DNA of 64,000 bases, from NCBI GenBank assembly GCA_002699145.1, contig PABK01000035.1:248001-312000 (forward strand). The letters are read 5' to 3'. The notes beneath the pieces were generated by a model. That model saw nothing but the letters and a program-made list of their open reading frames with translations. It ran no database searches and was not told the DNA's origin. The first letter of the stretch is position 1; each line of letters begins with the position of its first letter. This DNA comes from Halioglobus sp. (lineage in GTDB: Bacteria > Pseudomonadota > Gammaproteobacteria > Pseudomonadales > Halieaceae). The position numbers and the translations under genes were made by a program. Below are positions 8,854-17,114 of this stretch, one piece after another.

Positions 8854-8882
8854 TTGCACACTAATAGCTATTAGTCTATAGT
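8854..8882 (+). promoter_or_regulatory. sigma70-type promoter of the P450 gene with operator in the spacer
   Basis: TTGCAC (8854-8859) and TATAGT (8877-8882) are separated by exactly 17 bases. The spacer is almost entirely the palindrome ACTAATAGCTATTAGT. The P450 start codon follows 32 bases downstream of the -10 element. Occupation of the palindrome by a dimeric repressor would block RNA polymerase directly. Confidence 0.72.
8860..8875. promoter_or_regulatory. 16-bp perfect palindrome, candidate MarR-family operator
   Basis: ACTAATAGCTATTAGT is a perfect inverted repeat of two 8-base arms. It shares the 9-mer CTATTAGTC with the palindrome at 12419-12433 in front of the tandem-MarR gene. 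MarR proteins usually bind AT-rich palindromes of about this length between or over promoter elements. Assignment to that regulator is inference. Confidence 0.68.
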
Positions 8883-8914
8883 CGTCCGGTAAACCCTGAT
8901 ATGAGGCGATAACA

Positions 8915-10180
8915 ATGAGCCAGTGCCCCTTTGCCAATTTTCCGAACCTGATCGACCCGGAAACCTACGTCAACGGTATGCCCTACGAGACCCTGCGCGC
9001 GATCCGCGAGTCCGGGCCCGTGCACTGGATGGACGGTTCCTACGAGGGCGTGCCCTACTGGCTGGTGACCGGGCGCGACGAGATCGATTTTGTCTCCAAG
9101 AATCCCAAAATCTTCTCCAGCGAGGCCAGGACCGCCCTGTCCGAGGAGTGGGACGAGGAACTGCTGCCCTTGCAGCGGCAGATGATCATCAACATGGACC
9201 CGCCGCGGCAGCTCAAGTACCGCAAGATCGTGCGCGCCGCCTTCACGCCCGCGGCGGTGGGCTCCTACGAGGAGCGTTTCCGCCAGCATGCGAAAAATAT
9301 CGTCGACCGCGTGGCCGCGCGCGGCGAGTGCGAGTTCGTCGAGGAGGTGGCCGCGGAACTGCCGCTGCTGGCGATCCTCGAACTGTGCGGCGTGCCGCCG
9401 GAGGATCGCAAGGACTTCTTCGACTGGACCAACACCATGATGTTCAACCAGGACCCGGAAATGGCCGAGGACGAGAACGCCGCCCAGGTGGCCTCGGCGA
9501 ATGTCCTGGGCTATGCCGCCAGCCTGGCCGAGAAGTACAGGACCGACCCCAAGGACAATATTCTCGGCGCCCTGGTGAAAGGGCACGGCGGTGTCGACGG
9601 CCTCACCGAGGAGGAGTTCACCTGGTTCTTCCTGCTGCTGATCGTCGCCGGCAACGAGTCCACCCGCACCATCACCAGCCACGGCATGCGCCTGTTGATG
9701 GAAAACCCGGACCAGTTGCAGTACCTGGTGGACAACCCGGACAAGATCGCCGGCGCCACCGAGGAGATGATCCGCTACAACACCGCGTTCATCGTCATGC
9801 GCCGCCAGGTAATGGAGGACGTCGAGGTGGGCGGTGTGCAGATGAAGAAGGGCGACAAGCTGATCATGCACTACCACACGGTGAACCACGACGAGAAGAT
9901 TTTCGGCGAGGACGCCATGCAGTTCGACGTGCGCCGCCCGGAGCGTATGCCCAATATGTACAACGAGCATCGCGCCTTCGGTGTCGGGCAGCACTTCTGC
10001 CTGGGGACCCACCTGGCGCGGCTGGAAGTGCAGATCATGTTCGAGGAGATCATCCCGCGCCTGCGCAACCCGAAACTGGCGGAGGAGGTACGCTATACGC
10101 GCTCCAACCTGGTCAACGGCATCAAGAGCATGCGCATCACCTTCGACCCGGAGGTGAAGAAGGAAAGCGCGGCGGCCTGA
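8915..10180 (+). CDS. cytochrome P450
   Basis: A 421-residue soluble P450 with the I-helix motif AGNESTRT near residue 247, the K-helix EEMIRYNTAF near 285 and the heme loop FGVGQHFCLG with Cys362. The N terminus (SQCPFANFPNLIDPETYVNGMP) is typical of bacterial P450s that take hydrophobic alicyclic substrates. It is the only gene behind the operator-containing promoter at 8854-8882 and ends convergently to the hydroxylase operon read from the opposite side. No redox partner is encoded in the window. It probably performs the initial or an early hydroxylation in the pathway encoded from 10.2 to 17.1 kb. Confidence 0.93.
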   Translation: MSQCPFANFPNLIDPETYVNGMPYETLRAIRESGPVHWMDGSYEGVPYWLVTGRDEIDFVSKNPKIFSSEARTALSEEWDEELLPLQRQMIINMDPPRQLKYRKIVRAAFTPAAVGSYEERFRQHAKNIVDRVAARGECEFVEEVAAELPLLAILELCGVPPEDRKDFFDWTNTMMFNQDPEMAEDENAAQVASANVLGYAASLAEKYRTDPKDNILGALVKGHGGVDGLTEEEFTWFFLLLIVAGNESTRTITSHGMRLLMENPDQLQYLVDNPDKIAGATEEMIRYNTAFIVMRRQVMEDVEVGGVQMKKGDKLIMHYHTVNHDEKIFGEDAMQFDVRRPERMPNMYNEHRAFGVGQHFCLGTHLARLEVQIMFEEIIPRLRNPKLAEEVRYTRSNLVNGIKSMRITFDPEVKKESAAA

Positions 10181-10215
10181 GCCGACCGTTGAACTGAACG
10201 GGGCGGGCGAGCCGC

Positions 10216-10599
10216 TCAGGTCTCGCCGGTCCCGTCCTGCGCGGCCTCGGCGATCGCTTCCTCCATCGGGCCGAGCATGCTCGCCGCCCGGGGGTAGCCG
10301 CAGTACTGGGCGATAAACAGGTGCAGCTCGCGCACCTGGTCGGCGCTCAGTTCGCCGTTCTTGAGCGCGGCCTTGGTCTGGATCTTGAACGTCATGGCCT
10401 CGCCCTGGGCCGCGATCATGCCCAGCAACAGGATGCGCTTGTCGCGCATCGAGGTGGCGTCGCGGTTCCACTGGTCGGCGAATACCTGCGACAGCATGAC
10501 ATCGCTGAACAGGTAGCCTTCCGGCGGCACGACGACATCACCCGCATACACTTTCTTGATGGTTGCCTCGCCGAGTTCGCGACGTGCTTTGTCGTCCAT
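10216..10599 (-). CDS. carboxymuconolactone decarboxylase (CMD/AhpD-like) family protein
   Basis: A 127-residue small helical protein of the CMD/AhpD superfamily. The N-terminal ARRELGEATIKKVYAGD and the central helices KRILLLGMIAAQGEAM are family-like. The C-terminal helix has FIAQYCGYPRAASML, as in gamma-carboxymuconolactone decarboxylases. The CxxC pair of AhpD peroxidase members is absent, so a decarboxylase, lactone-acting or isomerase-like role is more likely than peroxidase. The ATG has AGGAG seven bases upstream. It is the third gene of the marR-hydroxylase-CMD operon on the minus strand. Confidence 0.85.
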   Translation of the reverse strand: MDDKARRELGEATIKKVYAGDVVVPPEGYLFSDVMLSQVFADQWNRDATSMRDKRILLLGMIAAQGEAMTFKIQTKAALKNGELSADQVRELHLFIAQYCGYPRAASMLGPMEEAIAEAAQDGTGET

Positions 10600-10614
10600 G
10601 GTCAATCTCCTGAG

Positions 10615-11343
10615 TTAGTCCAGCGTGCCGAAGAGCTTGTCGTAGAGCAGGGTGATCGTCGCGTAATTGCCCTTGTGCATGTTCTCGTGGTGAACGTGAT
10701 GCTTGGCGACGATCCAGTTGACGGTCTTGAACGGAAAGCGCGGCACGTCGAAGTACACGTGGTTGATCTGGTTCAACTGAAAATAGATGACGAAGGTGAG
10801 TACGATTGTTGCCAGGTGGAACGGCCCCATGAAAGCGGACAGCACGACGACGGTCAGCATGTAGCCGCCCAGCCCGACGAAAGTTTCCAGCGGGTGTACG
10901 TAGTGCGCGTCGAGATAACTGGGATTGCGCGCCTGGTGGTGCACCGCGTGGACCTTGCGCATGGCGCCGTTGCCGTGAAACCAGAAGCGGTGCGCGCAGT
11001 AGTAGAAAAAGTCGTAGACCATCAGGATGACAAAGACATCCAGCGGGATGCGCCACCAGGGCTGTGCCTCGAAGGTGACACAGAACGGCAGCAACAGCAG
11101 GAAGAACACGATATTCAGGTACTTGCCCACCTGCTGGCTGGAGCGAATCATGGGTGGGTACTTGTCTTTCTTCCAGCGTTTCTTGTCCTCCTCCTTGTTG
11201 CGGCGGCGCATCTCGGCCAGCTCTGGATGCATGAACAGCAACTTCTTGCCGGCGATGGTGATGCCGGCGATCAGCGCCAGCGCCGCGAGGGAGCCGAGAA
11301 AGTTGTAGTGCGCCCAGATCGTGTCTAGCCATTCATTCCACAT
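10615..11343 (-). CDS. sterol desaturase / fatty acid hydroxylase family membrane protein
   Basis: A 242-residue integral membrane di-iron oxygenase. Three histidine boxes supply the iron ligands: HRFWFH near residue 118, HAVHH near 132 and HHVHHENMH near 214, with hydrophobic segments around them. Members hydroxylate or desaturate sterols, carotenoids or fatty acyl chains using O2. The start codon lies inside the end of the marR gene (11-base overlap), so the two are translationally coupled. A membrane hydroxylase together with soluble P450s and dehydrogenases suggests a hydrophobic ring or long-chain substrate. Confidence 0.88.
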   Translation of the reverse strand: MWNEWLDTIWAHYNFLGSLAALALIAGITIAGKKLLFMHPELAEMRRRNKEEDKKRWKKDKYPPMIRSSQQVGKYLNIVFFLLLLPFCVTFEAQPWWRIPLDVFVILMVYDFFYYCAHRFWFHGNGAMRKVHAVHHQARNPSYLDAHYVHPLETFVGLGGYMLTVVVLSAFMGPFHLATIVLTFVIYFQLNQINHVYFDVPRFPFKTVNWIVAKHHVHHENMHKGNYATITLLYDKLFGTLD

Positions 11344-12397
11344 GGTTTGCTACCTCAGAGTGTGTCGCAGGTTGTAACAGCAGCCGCCCAAGGGCCTGGC
11401 TGGATTCCTCGCCCAGTCGCTGCCGCAGTTGTGCCGCGAGACGGTGAATGTCTTCTTCGCCGTCGGCAAACACGTCCTGTTCCAGTTGCAGGCCCTGGTA
11501 CAGGGTGCGCAGTGTCGCGGCCAGTTGCCGCATCGCTGGCGCGCCGACCAGCGCCGCGAATTCCCCCTCCAGTTCCTCCACGCTGGCCACCGAATCGGCG
11601 ATGAGCTGCTCCCCCCGGGGAGTGAACAGCAGCCGCAGTTGTCGCGCGTCCGACGGGTCCGCCTCGCGCCGCAGGTAACCGAGCTGCTGCAATTCCGTGG
11701 CGATGGCGCTGATGGCCTGTTTGCTCACGTCGTTGAGCGCGGCCATCTGCTGGATACGCCCGCCGCCAGGGCCCATCAGCGTGAGGACCTGGGCGAAGGA
11801 GAGTTTCAGCCCGGGGTGGCCCCGGGCCGCGGTCAGCTGCATGAGACGCTGCGCAATATAGTCGGCGCTGCGCGGCAACAGGCCGCCGAGACCCCCGTAG
11901 GCGACCTGCGCGCGCCCCAGTGCGCCCATGCCCAGGGACAGTTCGCCGTAAATCCGGCCCAGTGTTCGCGCCGCCCTGGCGACATCGTCCGCGCCGGCTA
12001 TCTGCCCGAACTGGCGATCCAGGTCGCGCACCACGCGCACGCCGTCGGCCCGCAGTTGTCGGCCGCGGGCGGTCAGGGCCAGGAGGCGGGCGCGGCCGTC
12101 ACTGGGGTCGCTTACACGGCCGATGTAGCCCGCCGCCTCGATCTGGTTCACCGCCTGGTTGCAGGCCTGCCGCGAGATGTGCAGCGTAGCGGCCAGTTCC
12201 GACAGGCGCAGGCCCTCGTCGCCGACCAGGGTGATGTAGGGGGCAAACCCCAGGCGCAGGTCGCGGTGGCCGCACTGCGCCTGCAAGGTATGCATCATGC
12301 GCGTCTGCAGATAGCGCGAGACACCGATCAGGTGCCGCGAGAAATTGTCGCGGTAGCGCTCCCAGGGTTTGCGGATTGGTCCGGCGGCTGCGGTCAT
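11333..12397 (-). CDS. tandem MarR-domain transcriptional regulator (two MarR units in one chain)
   Basis: A 354-residue protein made of two successive MarR winged-helix units, where ordinary MarR proteins have one of about 150. Unit 1 (about residues 20-155) contains LSELAATLHISRQACNQAVNQIE and a wing with SDPSDGRARLL. Unit 2 (about 175-305) contains IQQMAALNDVSKQAISAIATELQ and a wing with ADPSDARQLRLL. The two are clearly paralogous but diverged. A single chain could act as an internal pseudo-dimer. Start is the ATG at 12397; its promoter overlaps a 15-bp palindrome, implying autoregulation. It leads an operon with the hydroxylase and CMD genes and is divergent from the HIBADH operon. Confidence 0.88.
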   Translation of the reverse strand: MTAAAGPIRKPWERYRDNFSRHLIGVSRYLQTRMMHTLQAQCGHRDLRLGFAPYITLVGDEGLRLSELAATLHISRQACNQAVNQIEAAGYIGRVSDPSDGRARLLALTARGRQLRADGVRVVRDLDRQFGQIAGADDVARAARTLGRIYGELSLGMGALGRAQVAYGGLGGLLPRSADYIAQRLMQLTAARGHPGLKLSFAQVLTLMGPGGGRIQQMAALNDVSKQAISAIATELQQLGYLRREADPSDARQLRLLFTPRGEQLIADSVASVEELEGEFAALVGAPAMRQLAATLRTLYQGLQLEQDVFADGEEDIHRLAAQLRQRLGEESSQALGRLLLQPATHSEVANHVE

Positions 12398-12404
12398 GGG
12401 CGAA

Positions 12405-12433
12405 ATAGTAAATGCAGATTGACTAATAGTCAA
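12405..12433 (-). promoter_or_regulatory. sigma70-type promoter of the tandem-MarR operon
   Basis: On the minus strand, TTGACT (12433-12428) and TACTAT (12410-12405) are separated by 17 bases and lie just before the marR start at 12397. The -35 element is one arm of the palindrome at 12419-12433, so binding there would shut the promoter. The distance from -10 to ATG is very short, so the transcript would be nearly leaderless. Confidence 0.6.
12419..12433. promoter_or_regulatory. 15-bp palindrome, candidate operator of the tandem-MarR regulator
   Basis: TTGACTAATAGTCAA is a perfect inverted repeat of two 7-base arms around a central A. It covers the -35 of the marR promoter and lies six bases upstream of the -35 of the divergent HIBADH promoter. 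It shares the 9-mer CTATTAGTC (minus strand) with the palindrome inside the P450 promoter at 8860-8875. Confidence 0.7.
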
Positions 12434-12439
12434 TATGGC

Positions 12440-12468
12440 TTGACACATATTCCGGGGGCGCCTAGACT
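12440..12468 (+). promoter_or_regulatory. sigma70-type promoter of the HIBADH-ALDH-SDR-SDR-NTF2 operon
   Basis: TTGACA (12440-12445), a 17-base spacer, then TAGACT (12463-12468). The first gene begins at 12529 with a GGGGAG ribosome-binding site. The adjacent palindrome at 12419-12433 is placed where it could affect both divergent promoters. Confidence 0.6.
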
Positions 12469-12528
12469 GCCGAAAAAATCGCATCCATGCGTCGCGCTGC
12501 TGGCGGCGCAATGACACGGGGAGCCTGC

Positions 12529-13416
12529 ATGGGCGGCAAGACAAACGTTGGATTCATCGGCCTCGGCGACATCGGCAGTCACATGGGCAGGCACCTGGTG
12601 TGCGAGGCCTTCGAGGCGCACGTTTTCGACCTGGTGCCGGCGGCCGTAGAGGCCGCGGTGGAGGCGGGGGCGGTCGCCTCACCCTCGATCGCGGACATGG
12701 CTGGCAACTGCAGCTATATCGGCGTCTGTGTCAACAACGCACCGCAGGTGGAGAGCGTGTTGTACGGTGACGGCGGGCTGTTCGCCAACGCCGCGCCCGG
12801 CACCTGTATCGCGGTGCACAGCACCGTGACCCAGGCGCAATTGCTGCGCTGGGCCGGGGACGCCGCACAGCGTGACCTGCGCCTGCTGGACGCGCCCATG
12901 ACCGGTGGTGCTGCGCGTTCGCAGGAAGGTACGCTGTGCTACATGGTGGGAGGCAGTGAAGAGGACCTGGCGGCCGTCACGCCCATGCTGCAGACCTCGG
13001 CGGAGAAAATCGTACACGCCGGCCCGGTCGGCGCGGGCATCGCGCTGAAGCTGTGCAACAACTTCATGCAGTACACTGAATTCACGATCCTCGCCGAGGC
13101 GGCGCGCCTGGCGCAGGCCTGCGGCCTGTCGCTGGACGTGATCAAGGCGGTGGGCGAGTCCAACGGGGTGGTCAACCCCCAGTCCTACCAGTTCGTCAGC
13201 GGTCGCAACGCTCTCGCCCCGTCCTGTAGCGACGAGCAGATGGAGGAGTTCATGGGCTGGGCGGCGAAGCTGGCGGTGAAGGACCTTGACGCCTGCCTGG
13301 AAACCGCGGCGGAAAAAGGCGTGGTGCTGCCCACCGCGGAACACATCCGCGCCCGTATCGAAAACGTATTTCTCGCCCGGGACGAATCCCGTCCGGCGGC
13401 GGCAGGACAAGGATGA
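12529..13416 (+). CDS. 3-hydroxyisobutyrate dehydrogenase-family NAD(P)-dependent oxidoreductase
   Basis: A 295-residue beta-hydroxyacid dehydrogenase. The Rossmann motif GFIGLGDIGSHMG is at the N terminus, the substrate-binding DAPMTGGAARSQEG near residue 125, and the catalytic-lysine segment GAGIALKLCNNFM near 175. Members reversibly oxidise beta-hydroxyacids or related aldehydes and alcohols. The ATG at 12529 is chosen because GGGGAG precedes it at proper spacing and the Rossmann motif follows directly. It is the first gene of a five-gene operon and precedes the ALDH gene by four bases. Confidence 0.88.
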   Translation: MGGKTNVGFIGLGDIGSHMGRHLVCEAFEAHVFDLVPAAVEAAVEAGAVASPSIADMAGNCSYIGVCVNNAPQVESVLYGDGGLFANAAPGTCIAVHSTVTQAQLLRWAGDAAQRDLRLLDAPMTGGAARSQEGTLCYMVGGSEEDLAAVTPMLQTSAEKIVHAGPVGAGIALKLCNNFMQYTEFTILAEAARLAQACGLSLDVIKAVGESNGVVNPQSYQFVSGRNALAPSCSDEQMEEFMGWAAKLAVKDLDACLETAAEKGVVLPTAEHIRARIENVFLARDESRPAAAGQG

Positions 13417-13420
13417 GCGT

Positions 13421-14881
13421 ATGAACCCGGAAGCCAGGCTGTTTATCGACGGCGAACTGCTGCCCGCCGCCTCGGGAAAAACCTACCCGAACATCAACCC
13501 CGCCACGGAAGAGGTCATGGGCGAGGTCGCGGACGCCGGCGCCGGCGACATGGAGCGCGCCATCGCCGCCGCGCGCCGCGCCTTCGACACCAGCGACTGG
13601 GCGAGCAACCACGCGCTGCGTCACACCTGCCTGCAGCAGCTCTACGACGCCCTGCGCGAGGTGGAAGAAGAGTTCAAACAACAGATTGCCGCCGAGACGG
13701 GCGCGCCGCTGGGGATCTGCGGCGACATGGGGCCACAGTGCTCCGTGCCTATCGGTTTCATGCAGTACACCCTGGAGCAGTTGCCGCAATTCCAGTGGCG
13801 CCGCGACGCGGGGGTGTCCGAACTGATGGGCATTCCCAGTCGCCGCCTGGTGGAGAAAGAGCCGATTGGCGTGGTCGGCTGTATCACCCCGTGGAATGTG
13901 CCGTTGCAGATCAACCTGGCCAAGTGCGTGCCCGCCCTGGCGGCCGGTTGCAGCGTGGTGCTCAAGGCGGCGCCGGATACGCCCTGGTCGGCGACGATGC
14001 TCGGCCGGCTGGTGGCGGAGAAGACCGACATGCCCGCCGGTGTGTTCAACGTGATCACCGCCGCGGACCCGGTGGAGACCGGCGAACAGTTGGTGACCGA
14101 CCCGCGTGTCGACATGATCTCGTTCACCGGCTCCACCGCGGTGGGCAAGCACATCATGGCCCGGGCGGCGGGCACGGTGAAAAAAGTATTCCTGGAGTTG
14201 GGCGGCAAGTCGGCCAATATCCTGCTCGACGACGCGGACCTGAACGCCGCGCTGCTCAGTTGCCTGGGCGTGTGTTTCCACGCCGGCCAGGGCTGCGCCA
14301 TCCTCACCCGCCTGCTGGTGCCGAAATCGCGCCAGGCGGAGGTGGAGGAACTGCTGCCGACCTTCTTTGGTTTCATCGAGTACGGCGACCCGTCCTCCGG
14401 GCAGATCATGGGGGCGCTGATCAATGCGAAGCAGCGCGAGCGGGTGCTGGGCTATATCGAGAAGGGCAAGGCCGAGGGCGCGCGCCTGCTCATGGGCGGC
14501 GGCACGCCAGCCCACCTGGACAGGGGCTACTACGTGGAGCCGACGGTGTTCACCGATGTGAGCAATGACATGACCATTGCGCGCGAGGAAATCTTCGGCC
14601 CCGTGCTGGTGGTCATTCCCTACGAGGACGAGGAAGACGCCATCCGTATCGCCAACGATTCCGAGTACGGTCTATCTGGCGGCGTCTGGTCGGCGGACCA
14701 GGAGCGTGCGCTGGCCGTGGCGCGGCGCCTGCGCACCGGCACCGTACAGGTCAACGGCGGCGTCTACTACGGCGCCGACGCGCCCTTCGGCGGCTACAAA
14801 CAGAGCGGCATCGGGCGCGAGATGGGGCCCGAGGGTTTCGAGGAGTACCTGGAAACCAAGACCATCGCGATTGCCGTATGA
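13421..14881 (+). CDS. NAD(P)-dependent aldehyde dehydrogenase
   Basis: A 486-residue ALDH-superfamily enzyme oxidising an aldehyde to the acid. It shows the catalytic glutamate in LELGGKS, the nucleophile Cys292 in GQGCA, the cofactor segment FTGSTAVGKHIM and the C-terminal YGGYKQSG-like segment (FGGYKQSGIGREMG). Length is standard. Its stop overlaps the start of the next SDR gene (ATGA), so the operon is tightly coupled. Together with the upstream dehydrogenase and downstream SDRs it would oxidise an alcohol generated by the P450 or membrane hydroxylase to an acid; that pathway order is inference. Confidence 0.93.
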   Translation: MNPEARLFIDGELLPAASGKTYPNINPATEEVMGEVADAGAGDMERAIAAARRAFDTSDWASNHALRHTCLQQLYDALREVEEEFKQQIAAETGAPLGICGDMGPQCSVPIGFMQYTLEQLPQFQWRRDAGVSELMGIPSRRLVEKEPIGVVGCITPWNVPLQINLAKCVPALAAGCSVVLKAAPDTPWSATMLGRLVAEKTDMPAGVFNVITAADPVETGEQLVTDPRVDMISFTGSTAVGKHIMARAAGTVKKVFLELGGKSANILLDDADLNAALLSCLGVCFHAGQGCAILTRLLVPKSRQAEVEELLPTFFGFIEYGDPSSGQIMGALINAKQRERVLGYIEKGKAEGARLLMGGGTPAHLDRGYYVEPTVFTDVSNDMTIAREEIFGPVLVVIPYEDEEDAIRIANDSEYGLSGGVWSADQERALAVARRLRTGTVQVNGGVYYGADAPFGGYKQSGIGREMGPEGFEEYLETKTIAIAV

Positions 14882-15663
14882 GCCGGGACCTGGCGGGCGG
14901 CGTCTACATCGTCACCGGCGGCTCCCAGGGTTTTGGCCTGGCCATCGCCCGGGAACTGGTCGAGCACGGTGCGCGGGTTGGCCTGCTCAGTCGCAGCCGC
15001 GACAGGCTAGACGCCGCGGTGGCCGATCTCGGCGCGCAGCACGCCTTCGGCGTGGCGACGGACGTCGCCTCGCGCGCGGCGGTCGACAAGGCCTTCGCGG
15101 CAGTGAGCGAGCACTTCGGCCGCCTCGACGGCCTGGTGAACAACGCCGGTATGGCGCGTCCCGACCGCATCGAGCAACTAGTGGAGGCGGAGGTCCAGGC
15201 CCAGGTCAACACCAACTTCCTGGGCACCGTGTTCTGCTGCCAGGCGGCGATTCCCCTGTTGCGCGGCGGCGACAATCCGCGCATCGTCAACATATCCTCG
15301 GCCTCCGCCTGGCACTACGACGAAATCGTGCACCTGTCGATCTACGCCGCGACCAAGGCCGCGGTGGAGCGCTTCAGCCGCGACCTGCGCGAGGAACTGC
15401 AGGCCGACCGCATCGGTGTCACCTGCGTTCGTCCCGGCGGCGCGGTGACCGATTTCGCCAGCGAGTGGGCGAGGGAGAAATTCGAAGCCGCCATGCAGGG
15501 CTGGCAGGCTACCGGCAGCCACCTGGACATGGGCATGGAGGCGGCCCACGTGGCGGCGTCGGTACGCTACGCCCTGGCGCAGCCGCCCGGTGTGGCGGTG
15601 GACCTGCTGGAAATCAGGCCCAATATCCCGGTGGCCAAGGCCGACCTCTACGGCAAGCAGTGA
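14878..15663 (+). CDS. SDR family oxidoreductase
   Basis: A 261-residue classical SDR with TGGSQGFG near residue 13, NNAG near 87, the catalytic Ser in NISSASA near 139 and YAATK near 154-158. The insertion HYDEIVHLS between the catalytic Ser and Tyr is a little unusual. The start overlaps the ALDH stop by four bases. Probably a NAD(P)-dependent alcohol or hydroxyacyl dehydrogenase of the same pathway; the substrate is not evident. Confidence 0.9.
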   Translation: MSRDLAGGVYIVTGGSQGFGLAIARELVEHGARVGLLSRSRDRLDAAVADLGAQHAFGVATDVASRAAVDKAFAAVSEHFGRLDGLVNNAGMARPDRIEQLVEAEVQAQVNTNFLGTVFCCQAAIPLLRGGDNPRIVNISSASAWHYDEIVHLSIYAATKAAVERFSRDLREELQADRIGVTCVRPGGAVTDFASEWAREKFEAAMQGWQATGSHLDMGMEAAHVAASVRYALAQPPGVAVDLLEIRPNIPVAKADLYGKQ

Positions 15664-15675
15664 CAGGAGAAAAAA

Positions 15676-16500
15676 ATGAATGACATCCTTGGATACCAGG
15701 GCCAGAACGTCGTCATCACCGGCGCGGCCTCGGGCATGGGGCGCGCCGCCGCGCAATTGCTCGTCGACCTGGGCGCGCAGGTCTACGCGCTGGATATTGC
15801 CGAGGTGACGGTGCCCGTGGCGCGGGCGCTCAAGGTGGACATGAAGGACGCGGCCAGCCTGGATGCGGCGATCGCCCAGTTGCCCGCAGACATCTACGCG
15901 TTGTTCAACTGCGCCGGGGTGCCCAGCCCGCCGTTTGGCCGCGACGACACCGTGCTGATCAACTTCTCCGGACTGCGCTATCTCACCGAGTCGCTGGAGT
16001 CGCGCATCACCGAGGGCGGCGCCATCGCGTCCATCGCCTCCACCGCGGGCATGGGTTGGCGAGGGGCGCTGGACGGCGTGCGCCGCTTCCTGGCCCTGGA
16101 CAAGGGCCTGGACAGCGCGCGCCAGTGGCTACAGGACAACAGCGAGACCGTGTTCGACGGCTACAGCTTCTCCAAGCAATGCATCATCGTGTATACCATG
16201 AGCCGCGCCGCGGAGCTGGCCGCGCGCGGTATCCGCATCAACTGCATCGCCCCCTCGCCGACGGAAAGCGGCTTCATGGTCGCTCTCAAGGGCGAGGGCC
16301 AGATCCCGGACGAGGCGGTGGAGCTGTTCCTGCCGCCCAACGGCCGCTACGCGACGGGCGCGGACATGGGGCAGCCGCTGGTGCTGCTCAACAGCAAGCT
16401 CGCCGGTTTCGTCAGCGGGCTGAACATCCCCGTGGACTTCGGCTACACGGCCCAGGTATTGATGGGCCAGCGCGATGACCTGATGGGGATTGGCGCCTGA
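15676..16500 (+). CDS. SDR family oxidoreductase, 3-alpha-HSD / coniferyl-alcohol-dehydrogenase-like
   Basis: A 274-residue SDR with TGAASGMG near residue 15, NCAG near 78, SIASTAGMG near 117 and the catalytic YSFSK near 160-164. The shortened segment between cofactor half and active site, and the long insertion between SIASTAG and YSFSK, are typical of the 3-alpha-hydroxysteroid dehydrogenase/carbonyl reductase subgroup known from Comamonas. That points to a cyclic or aromatic hydroxyl or ketone substrate. GACAGGAG precedes the ATG and 12 bases separate it from the previous SDR. Confidence 0.87.
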   Translation: MNDILGYQGQNVVITGAASGMGRAAAQLLVDLGAQVYALDIAEVTVPVARALKVDMKDAASLDAAIAQLPADIYALFNCAGVPSPPFGRDDTVLINFSGLRYLTESLESRITEGGAIASIASTAGMGWRGALDGVRRFLALDKGLDSARQWLQDNSETVFDGYSFSKQCIIVYTMSRAAELAARGIRINCIAPSPTESGFMVALKGEGQIPDEAVELFLPPNGRYATGADMGQPLVLLNSKLAGFVSGLNIPVDFGYTAQVLMGQRDDLMGIGA

Positions 16501-16586
16501 CAGGAATAGGTTCCCCGCGTGGCGCGGCGAGTCGTCAGCGCCGCCAGCCGGGACCCGTTGTGATGGCTAGTGAACAGGAGTCGACC

Positions 16587-17114
16587 ATGCCCGGACTGAG
16601 CGAGGGGGCGCTGCGCGCCACCGCCGAGAAACTGATTGCCGCCCATGAACAGGCCTCCGCGAGCGGCGAGTGGACCTTCTTCGTCGACGAGATCTACGCG
16701 CGCGACTGTATTTACACCTGCCAGTACGCCGGCGTGATGGAGGTGACTGCCAACGGCATCGACGAGATCAAGGCCACCCACTACGGGCGCGATATGGCCG
16801 TGGGTTGGGAGGGCTGGACCTTTCCCTACCTGGGGGTCTACACCGGCAATGACAACCAGCTGATCACCCACTGGCTGAACCGCGGCCCGGGCAGGCGCGC
16901 GGACGGTTCGCACTTCGAAACGCCGGGCGTTTCGTTTATCACTCTGGATGACCAGGCGAGAATCTGCCGCCAGCTCGATATGTTCGACCTTGCTCACCAG
17001 ATGAAACTGTGTGACGAACTGGAGGACGCCGGGTTGTTGTCGCTGCAGCTCAAGCAGCAGTGGGTCCTGCCGATGAAGGGCAAACTGCAGGCCCAGCTGG
17101 CCCGCAACCCCTGA
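16587..17114 (+). CDS. nuclear transport factor 2 / SnoaL-like family protein
   Basis: A 175-residue single-domain protein of the NTF2/SnoaL alpha+beta cone fold, judged from the FFVDEIYARDCIYTCQY helix-strand start and the paired strands around THWLNRGPGRRADGSHFETPGVSFI. Such proteins include ketosteroid isomerases, epoxide hydrolases and dehydratases acting on ring compounds, but many are uncharacterised. The ATG at 16587 is preferred over codons at 16560/16563 because AACAGGAG lies six bases upstream. It closes the operon that starts at 12529. Confidence 0.75.
   Translation: MPGLSEGALRATAEKLIAAHEQASASGEWTFFVDEIYARDCIYTCQYAGVMEVTANGIDEIKATHYGRDMAVGWEGWTFPYLGVYTGNDNQLITHWLNRGPGRRADGSHFETPGVSFITLDDQARICRQLDMFDLAHQMKLCDELEDAGLLSLQLKQQWVLPMKGKLQAQLARNP

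What the first reader, a model, noticed from the sequence alone, without database searches (positions are those of the whole stretch)
8854..12468. Shared palindromes tie a P450 promoter to a tandem-MarR control region
The P450 promoter has its 17-bp spacer filled by a perfect 16-bp palindrome (ACTAATAGCTATTAGT). A 15-bp palindrome (TTGACTAATAGTCAA) with the same CTATTAGTC core overlaps the -35 of the marR promoter and lies just upstream of the -35 of the divergent HIBADH promoter. Three transcription units read in both directions would therefore answer to one regulator. The geometry is directly visible; the regulator assignment is inference.
Basis: partly seen in the sequence, partly recalled or inferred. 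Interest (0 to 1): 0.72.

Follow-up and report, generated by a model that had tools for sequence, protein, structure and literature searches.

The report
Two separate operators, not one
Two look-alike DNA palindromes in a marine bacterium are best read as landing sites for two different gene switches: a double MarR protein controlling its own gene and probably its neighbour, and a TetR protein that appears to control cytochrome P450 genes together with an electron-supply complex.

Summary
The palindromes and promoter geometry are real, and both sites are conserved in relatives. The proposed link is not supported: they look like two different operators.

Site 1 (12408-12444, marR/HIBADH region): in 30 of 30 fetched orthologs of the 354-aa tandem MarR, half-sites GTCAA, TTGAC and TTTAC are invariant with fixed spacing. 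A third half-site between the last two is GTCAA in 22 of 30. The array covers the marR -35, touches its -10 and contains the HIBADH -35.

Site 2 (8860-8875, ACTAAT-N4-ATTAGT, P450 promoter) recurs in 27 of 29 P450 ortholog promoters and in 46 of 59 promoters of an unlinked TetR gene beside rpsT. In 18 congeners, 43 of 44 exact sites lie upstream of tetR, an aldehyde dehydrogenase, rnfA or a P450. The extended site is found in 12 of 22 genomes with only the TetR and 1 of 8 with only the tandem MarR. Each motif scores far lower with the other's matrix.

The shared 9-mer is best read as coincidence. The new result is a predicted TetR regulon coupling CYP125-like P450s, an aldehyde dehydrogenase and the Rnf complex. 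No binding was tested.

The parts
8860..8875 (.). TetR-type operator ACTAAT-N4-ATTAGT (perfect 16-bp palindrome) in the P450 promoter
   Evidence: Sequence. At most 1 mismatch in 27 of 29 P450 ortholog promoters. Same palindrome upstream of tetR (G000:C58), rnfA (C27) and an ALDH (C22); these four are the only exact sites in the genome.
8854..8882 (+). P450 core promoter: TTGCAC (8854-8859), 17-bp spacer, TATAGT (8877-8882)
   Evidence: Sequence; consensus match only, no start site mapped.
8915..10180 (+). CYP125-like cytochrome P450, 421 aa
   Evidence: Pfam p450 4.1e-23; nearest solved sequences are CYP125 entries, best 2.1e-98.
11333..12397 (-). Tandem MarR regulator, 354 aa, an internal duplication; possibly leaderless mRNA
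   Evidence: Two MarR stretches in Pfam; halves 38.6% identical over 127 aa, E 5e-24, hhalign probability 99.8. Matches at E<=1e-25 in 45 of 145 genomes.
12408..12444 (-). MarR operator array of four half-sites on the marR strand: GTCAA (12444-12440), TTGAC (12433-12429), GTCAA (12423-12419), TTTAC (12412-12408); spacings 6, 5, 6
   Evidence: Half-sites 1, 2 and 4 invariant with fixed spacing in 30 of 30 orthologs; half-site 3 GTCAA in 22, GACAA 5, other 3. Of 12 further loci not among those 30, 8 match GTCAA-N6-TTGAC-N16-NTTAC.
12418..12434 (.). 17-bp odd palindrome ATTGACTAATAGTCAAT, the middle dyad of the array
12405..12433 (-). marR promoter: -35 TTGACT (12433-12428), -10 TACTAT (12410-12405); start codon 7 nt downstream
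   Evidence: Sequence; TTTAC invariant in 30 orthologs; an ATG follows the -10 by 6-8 nt in 28 of 30.
12440..12468 (+). Divergent HIBADH promoter: -35 TTGACA (12440-12445, its first five bases are half-site 1), -10 TAGACT (12463-12468)
   Evidence: Sequence; reverse complement GTCAA invariant in 30 of 30 orthologs.
12529..13416 (+). HIBADH-family dehydrogenase, probable start at 12529 (GGGGAG upstream)
   Evidence: Pfam NAD_binding_2 7.2e-36; detected near MarR in 18 of 20 contexts.
13421..17114 (+). Genes downstream of HIBADH: ALDH (13421-14881), SDR (14878-15663), SDR (15676-16500), SnoaL-like (16560-17114)
   Evidence: Pfam (SnoaL_2 below its curated cut-off); several detected near MarR in most of 20 contexts, some cut by contig ends.
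10216..11343 (-). Genes co-directional with marR: FA_hydroxylase-type membrane protein (10615-11343), CMD-family protein (10216-10599)
   Evidence: Pfam; FA_hydroxylase gene beside MarR in 20 of 20 contexts, CMD in 18 of 20 (not in the stretch held of L074, L084).

Best explanation
The window holds two conserved but separate operators. (1) The tandem MarR, an internal duplication of a MarR domain, binds the four-half-site array in its divergent promoter with HIBADH. Binding would cover its own -35, touch its -10 and cover the HIBADH -35, so it represses itself (with the downstream FA_hydroxylase and CMD genes) and the HIBADH-ALDH-SDR genes until a ligand releases it. (2) The P450 palindrome is an operator of an unlinked TetR-family repressor encoded divergently from rpsT (G000:C58:9436-10026). 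That repressor controls its own gene, CYP125-like and other P450s, an aldehyde dehydrogenase and the rnf operon. Shown: sequence, conservation, spacing, site inventory, co-occurrence. Inferred: protein-DNA binding, repression rather than activation, the ligands, and that Rnf supplies electrons to P450s.
For: MarR array: half-sites 1, 2, 4 in 30 of 30 orthologs at fixed spacing, half-site 3 exact in 22; 8 of 12 further loci; one place in the genome; synteny. TetR site: 27 of 29 P450 promoters at most 1 mismatch, shuffles mean 0.05, max 1; 46 of 59 tetR promoters, shuffles mean 0.09, max 2; 43 of 44 exact sites in 18 congeners upstream of tetR (12), ALDH (14), rnfA (12) or P450 (5), against 15 places for the reversed control (with 21, 30, 35, 36, 45). 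Separation: cross-scores 30.0 against 4.2 and 31.3 against 10.2 bits; extended site in 33 of 37 genomes with both regulators, 12 of 22 with TetR only, 1 of 8 with tandem MarR only, 5 of 78 with neither; P450 site kept in 8 of 8 loci without tandem MarR, and not found upstream of the P450 of G135, which has tandem MarR but no TetR hit.
Against: No binding or expression data. The marR palindrome holds one intact TetR half-site (TATTAGT) and ranks 3rd-4th in the window for the TetR-type matrices; the P450 site ranks 7th for the MarR 15-mer matrix. One base of the P450 site and the centre of the MarR site agree in class (A/T or G/C) in 16 of 19 genomes (naive p 0.0095), though 11 of the 12 genomes with the variant P450 base form one clade. 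Six motif-positive genomes have no TetR at E<=1e-60 and G068 keeps the P450 site with only a distant TetR hit. 13 of 59 tetR promoters lack the site. The motif is commoner with both regulators (33 of 37) than with TetR alone (12 of 22). Co-occurrence tests ignore phylogeny. Four of 12 further MarR loci lack the array, and half-site 3 varies in 8 of 30.
Confidence: 0.8

Rival explanations
1. One reading: the tandem MarR binds both palindromes through the shared CTATTAGTC core and controls three transcription units.
For: The 9-mer is in both sites. In a subset of relatives P450 and MarR stay neighbours. One base within the 9-mer agrees in class in 16 of 19 genomes. The extended P450-type motif also co-occurs with tandem MarR over 145 genomes ([[34,17],[11,83]]).
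Against: Conserved MarR letters are TTGAC/GTCAA with a variable centre. P450 palindrome scores 4.2 against 30.0 bits. Site kept in 8 of 8 P450 loci without tandem MarR; found in 1 of 8 genomes with tandem MarR but no TetR. The base agreement is mostly one clade. The palindrome recurs at unlinked tetR, rnfA and ALDH promoters.
Confidence: 0.06
2. The P450 palindrome belongs to a regulator other than the rpsT-linked TetR, and that TetR gene is itself one of its targets.
For: Six motif-positive genomes, and the P450 locus of G068, lack a clear TetR ortholog. A shared site does not by itself identify the binder.
Against: tetR is the only regulator gene I recognised next to the 44 exact sites in 18 congeners (and the calls cited there). 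Its site abuts or overlaps a TATACT-like -10 in most orthologs. Of the six motif-positive genomes without TetR, five have only sites with 1-2 mismatches.
Confidence: 0.13
3. The MarR array is only promoter sequence (TTGAC boxes of two divergent promoters) with no operator role.
For: Half-sites 1 and 2 are -35 boxes and half-site 4 overlaps a -10. Half-site 3, the one without a promoter role, is the least conserved (22 of 30 exact).
Against: Half-site 3 lies in the -35/-10 spacer, where sequence is usually free, yet keeps 1.0-2.0 bits per column at fixed spacing.
Confidence: 0.08

Closest known systems
Bm3R1 / FatR, TetR-family repressors of CYP102 P450s in Bacillus (PMC3814354, passages seen)
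   Same: TetR-family repressor, palindromic operator, a P450 target, autoregulation (fatR-cyp102A3 operon).
   Different: FatR bound a single genomic site by ChIP-on-chip, its palindrome lying between start site and Shine-Dalgarno; here the TetR is unlinked, with four kinds of predicted target and CYP125-like P450s. Ligand unknown.
Single-domain MarR-family repressors such as HcaR, CouR, HpaR (names; mechanism recalled)
   Same: Winged-helix MarR domains; palindrome over a divergent promoter; control of a catabolic cluster inferred.
   Different: Two MarR domains in one chain; four regularly spaced half-sites instead of one dyad.
Mce3R, a fused double TetR (PDB 9b7y, 406 aa, two matched stretches; mechanism recalled)
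   Same: Regulator made of two fused copies of a domain that normally dimerises.
   Different: TetR fold, not MarR; other bacteria and targets. An analogy only.

Membership tests
MarR family (tandem form) | MarR winged-helix domain(s) | tested here: met
   PF12802 3.7e-20 and PF01047 6.4e-13, two stretches each; internal repeat 38.6% over 127 aa.
MarR family (tandem form) | Dimer binding a palindrome in or near its own promoter | tested here: inconclusive
   Conserved dyad array in its own promoter; binding and oligomeric state not testable here.
MarR family (tandem form) | Ligand-released repression | not testable with these tools
   No expression or ligand data.
TetR family (rpsT-linked regulator) | TetR_N DNA-binding domain | tested here: met
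   PF00440 3.6e-18 on the own-genome copy.
TetR family (rpsT-linked regulator) | Palindrome in its own promoter | tested here: met
   Own copy exact; 46 of 59 ortholog promoters at most 1 mismatch, 13 lack it. Sequence only, not binding.
Bm3R1/FatR fatty-acid-displaced regulators | Encoded beside its P450 | tested here: not met
   TetR is on contig C58 beside rpsT; the window P450 is on C51.
Bm3R1/FatR fatty-acid-displaced regulators | Release by fatty acids | not testable with these tools
   No ligand data.
CYP125 P450s | Closest solved sequence relatives are CYP125 enzymes | tested here: met
   CYP125MRCA 2.1e-98, CYP125 6.3e-78; activity not tested.

The most novel reading that the evidence does not exclude
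A single TetR regulon in Halieaceae couples several P450 subfamilies (CYP125-like and, in other genera, CYP51/CYP120-like) with the Rnf complex and an aldehyde dehydrogenase, because Rnf makes the reduced ferredoxin on which these P450s run; and the neighbouring tandem MarR is a covalent pseudo-dimer that reads a four-half-site array so that two chains silence two divergent promoters at once.
Probability: 0.3. Interest if true: 0.68.

Novelty: new variant of a known kind. Interest (0 to 1): 0.47.

Why it matters
It corrects a tempting look-alike inference: two palindromes sharing nine letters most likely belong to different regulators. It also yields two testable predictions in a marine family: an internally duplicated MarR with a regularly spaced four-half-site operator, and a TetR regulon tying P450s to Rnf. 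For many bacterial P450s the electron source is unknown (recalled), so co-regulation with Rnf would give a candidate redox partner to test.

Tried and rejected
Rejected: a genome-wide regulon of the CTATTAGTC core. GACTAATAGTC with at most 1 mismatch gave 7 strand matches at 5 places (reversed control 33 and 27): marR; C17 and C45, identical stretches upstream of a P450 paralog; C27 by rnfA; C23 without an assigned role.

Rejected: other targets of the tandem MarR in the genome. TTGACTANTAGTCAA with at most 2 mismatches and the longer array with at most 3 each found only the marR site.

Weak lead not pursued: a 1-mismatch TetR-type site near fdxA on duplicated contigs C18/C46. At that tolerance the control pattern was commoner than the motif (16 against 7). 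None of the 44 exact sites in the genus was assigned to fdxA.

Paper searches for tandem or fused MarR, a Halieaceae TetR/P450 system, a TetR/rnfA/P450 regulon, Rnf with P450 and the two operator strings showed nothing on these systems. Searches returned 0 papers and one unrelated paper; I saw only the top 15 of 50,213, 12 of 799, 10 of 425 and 10 of 11. Most subscription papers are not in the library.

The first scan of genome contigs with one protein found no relative; the alignment query gave 39 loci. Alignment A1 used 22 of 30 orthologs: L029-L032, reported with a stop inside, were left out, and L019, L022, L024, L025 were left out without a sequence reason. A2 used the window protein and 37 of 39 loci (L211, L233 left out for a stop inside the reported match). 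In one search two of 30 tetR loci were mis-anchored (23 of 30 exact); corrected.
Full report
What is in the sequence. The marR palindrome is odd-centred and runs to 17 bp (12418-12434). Palindromes as such are common here: 7 even and 9 odd perfect ones with 8-bp arms in 64 kb. The case therefore rests on conservation.

The MarR site. The 354-aa regulator is an internal duplication: its halves are 38.6% identical over 127 aa (E 5e-24) and align with hhalign probability 99.8. Pfam finds two MarR stretches. Matches at E<=1e-25 occur in 45 of 145 searched genomes, and the best 30 loci were fetched. All 30 match TTGAC-N16-NTTAC upstream of the gene and were aligned on it. In this alignment half-sites GTCAA, TTGAC and TTTAC (1, 2, 4) are identical in 30 of 30 at fixed spacing. 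Half-site 3 is GTCAA in 22, GACAA in 5, and ATCAA, GGCAA and AGTAA in one each, 1.0-2.0 bits per column against about 0.1-1.2 in the spacers. Half-site 3 lies in the -35/-10 spacer, so promoter function alone does not explain it. A second scan gave 39 loci, but 27 are contigs already among the 30; of the 12 new ones, 8 match GTCAA-N6-TTGAC-N16-NTTAC and L239, L240, L241 and L248 do not. Record titles include Halioglobus, Haliea, Parahaliea and Pseudohalioglobus, so family f1 is taken to be Halieaceae (inferred). In this genome only the marR site was found. An ATG follows the -10 by 6-8 nt in 28 of 30, which suggests a leaderless mRNA. In 20 contexts the FA_hydroxylase neighbour is found in 20, CMD in 18 and the divergent HIBADH gene in 18.

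The P450 site. Of 30 P450 loci, 29 have upstream sequence, and 27 of these carry ACTAAY-N4-RKTAGT with at most 1 mismatch (21 exact); shuffles gave a mean of 0.05 and a maximum of 1. The misses are L061 (G135) and L062 (G006; another G006 copy, L136, has an exact extended site). The window P450 is CYP125-like. A longer version of the motif, at most 2 mismatches, occurs in 51 of 145 genomes. Many of the sites read in context lie shortly upstream of P450 genes, including a P450 of about 453 aa only 23% identical to a P450 paralog of this genome and closest to CYP51 and CYP120.

The likely regulator. One of those sites lies 16 bp upstream of a TetR-family gene divergent from rpsT (L128); a second genome (G085) shows the same. 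The ortholog in this genome is G000:C58:9436-10026, a TetR_N protein. Of 59 orthologs at E<=1e-60, 46 have the palindrome in the promoter with at most 1 mismatch (38 exact), against a mean of 0.09 in shuffles; 13 do not. This genome has exactly four exact ACTAAYNNNNRTTAGT places: the window P450, tetR, rnfA and an aldehyde dehydrogenase (Pfam). At up to 1 mismatch the reversed control is commoner than the pattern (16 against 7), so weaker sites are not counted. In 18 congeners there are 44 exact places against 15 for the reversed control: tetR 12, aldehyde dehydrogenase 14, rnfA 12, P450 5, and one upstream of a cytochrome oxidase subunit II gene. Of the 44, 31 were read, four are the own-genome sites, three were read (the aldehyde dehydrogenase and TetR ones by eye) and six were assigned from coordinates beside hits. 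rnfA sites also occur in two other genera (L107, L124).

Are the two sites one? Matrices built without the window give the marR palindrome 30.0 bits and the P450 palindrome 4.2 bits for MarR; the TetR-promoter matrix gives the P450 palindrome 31.3 and the marR palindrome 10.2 bits, which comes from one intact half-site. Eight of 8 P450 loci from genomes without tandem MarR at E<=1e-25 keep the palindrome (G003, G041, G057, G062, G068, G078, G085, G088; several are incomplete drafts). The P450 promoter of G135, which has tandem MarR but no TetR hit at E<=1e-20, lacks it. The extended motif is found in 33 of 37 genomes with both regulators, 12 of 22 with TetR only, 1 of 8 with tandem MarR only and 5 of 78 with neither. 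As tables over 145 genomes: TetR [[45,6],[14,80]], tandem MarR [[34,17],[11,83]]; in the family outside the genus [[25,2],[13,32]] and [[15,12],[7,38]]. These tests ignore phylogeny.

Against this reading. In 19 genomes with both sites, one base of the P450 site and the centre of the MarR site are both A/T or both G/C in 16 (Fisher p 0.0095). On a MarR protein tree, 11 of the 12 genomes with the variant P450 base form one clade, so this may be one or two events. It leaves some room for a shared binder. Six motif-positive genomes have no TetR at E<=1e-60: G017 with an exact extended site, and five with 1-2 mismatches. G068 keeps the P450 site with only a distant TetR hit.

Mechanism. Shown: the sites, their conservation, spacing and adjacent genes. 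Inferred: that MarR represses itself and the HIBADH genes, that TetR represses P450s, aldehyde dehydrogenase, Rnf and itself, and that Rnf feeds electrons to the P450s. TetR repressors of P450s are known in Bacillus (PMC3814354, passages seen), there with one genomic target for FatR. No paper on a tandem MarR or on this regulon was seen in the searches, of which four showed only the top of longer lists.

Noticed in passing
G000:C17 and G000:C45 (L003, L005); G000:C18 and C46 (L174, L175): Contig pairs carry identical or near-identical stretches (3011 of 3011 bases for L003/L005), so the assembly holds duplicated contigs or a true duplication.
   Followed up: partly
window 12397-12410: The marR start codon lies 7 nt after the -10, and 6-8 nt in 28 of 30 orthologs: possibly a leaderless mRNA.
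   Followed up: partly
window 10216-15663: ALDH matches TIGR04284 aldehy_Rv0768 below its cut-off (678 of 775 bits); with SDR, HIBADH and CMD neighbours it recalls the Rv0768-Rv0771 gene order of Mycobacterium (recalled, not tested).
   Followed up: no
L240: A contig titled Klebsiella pneumoniae (MAG) carries a tandem MarR 49% identical to this one; possibly a mislabelled bin.
   Followed up: no
G013:C36 (L200): An exact TetR-type site lies about 67 bp upstream of a cytochrome c oxidase subunit II gene, the only one of 44 sites outside the four target types.
   Followed up: no
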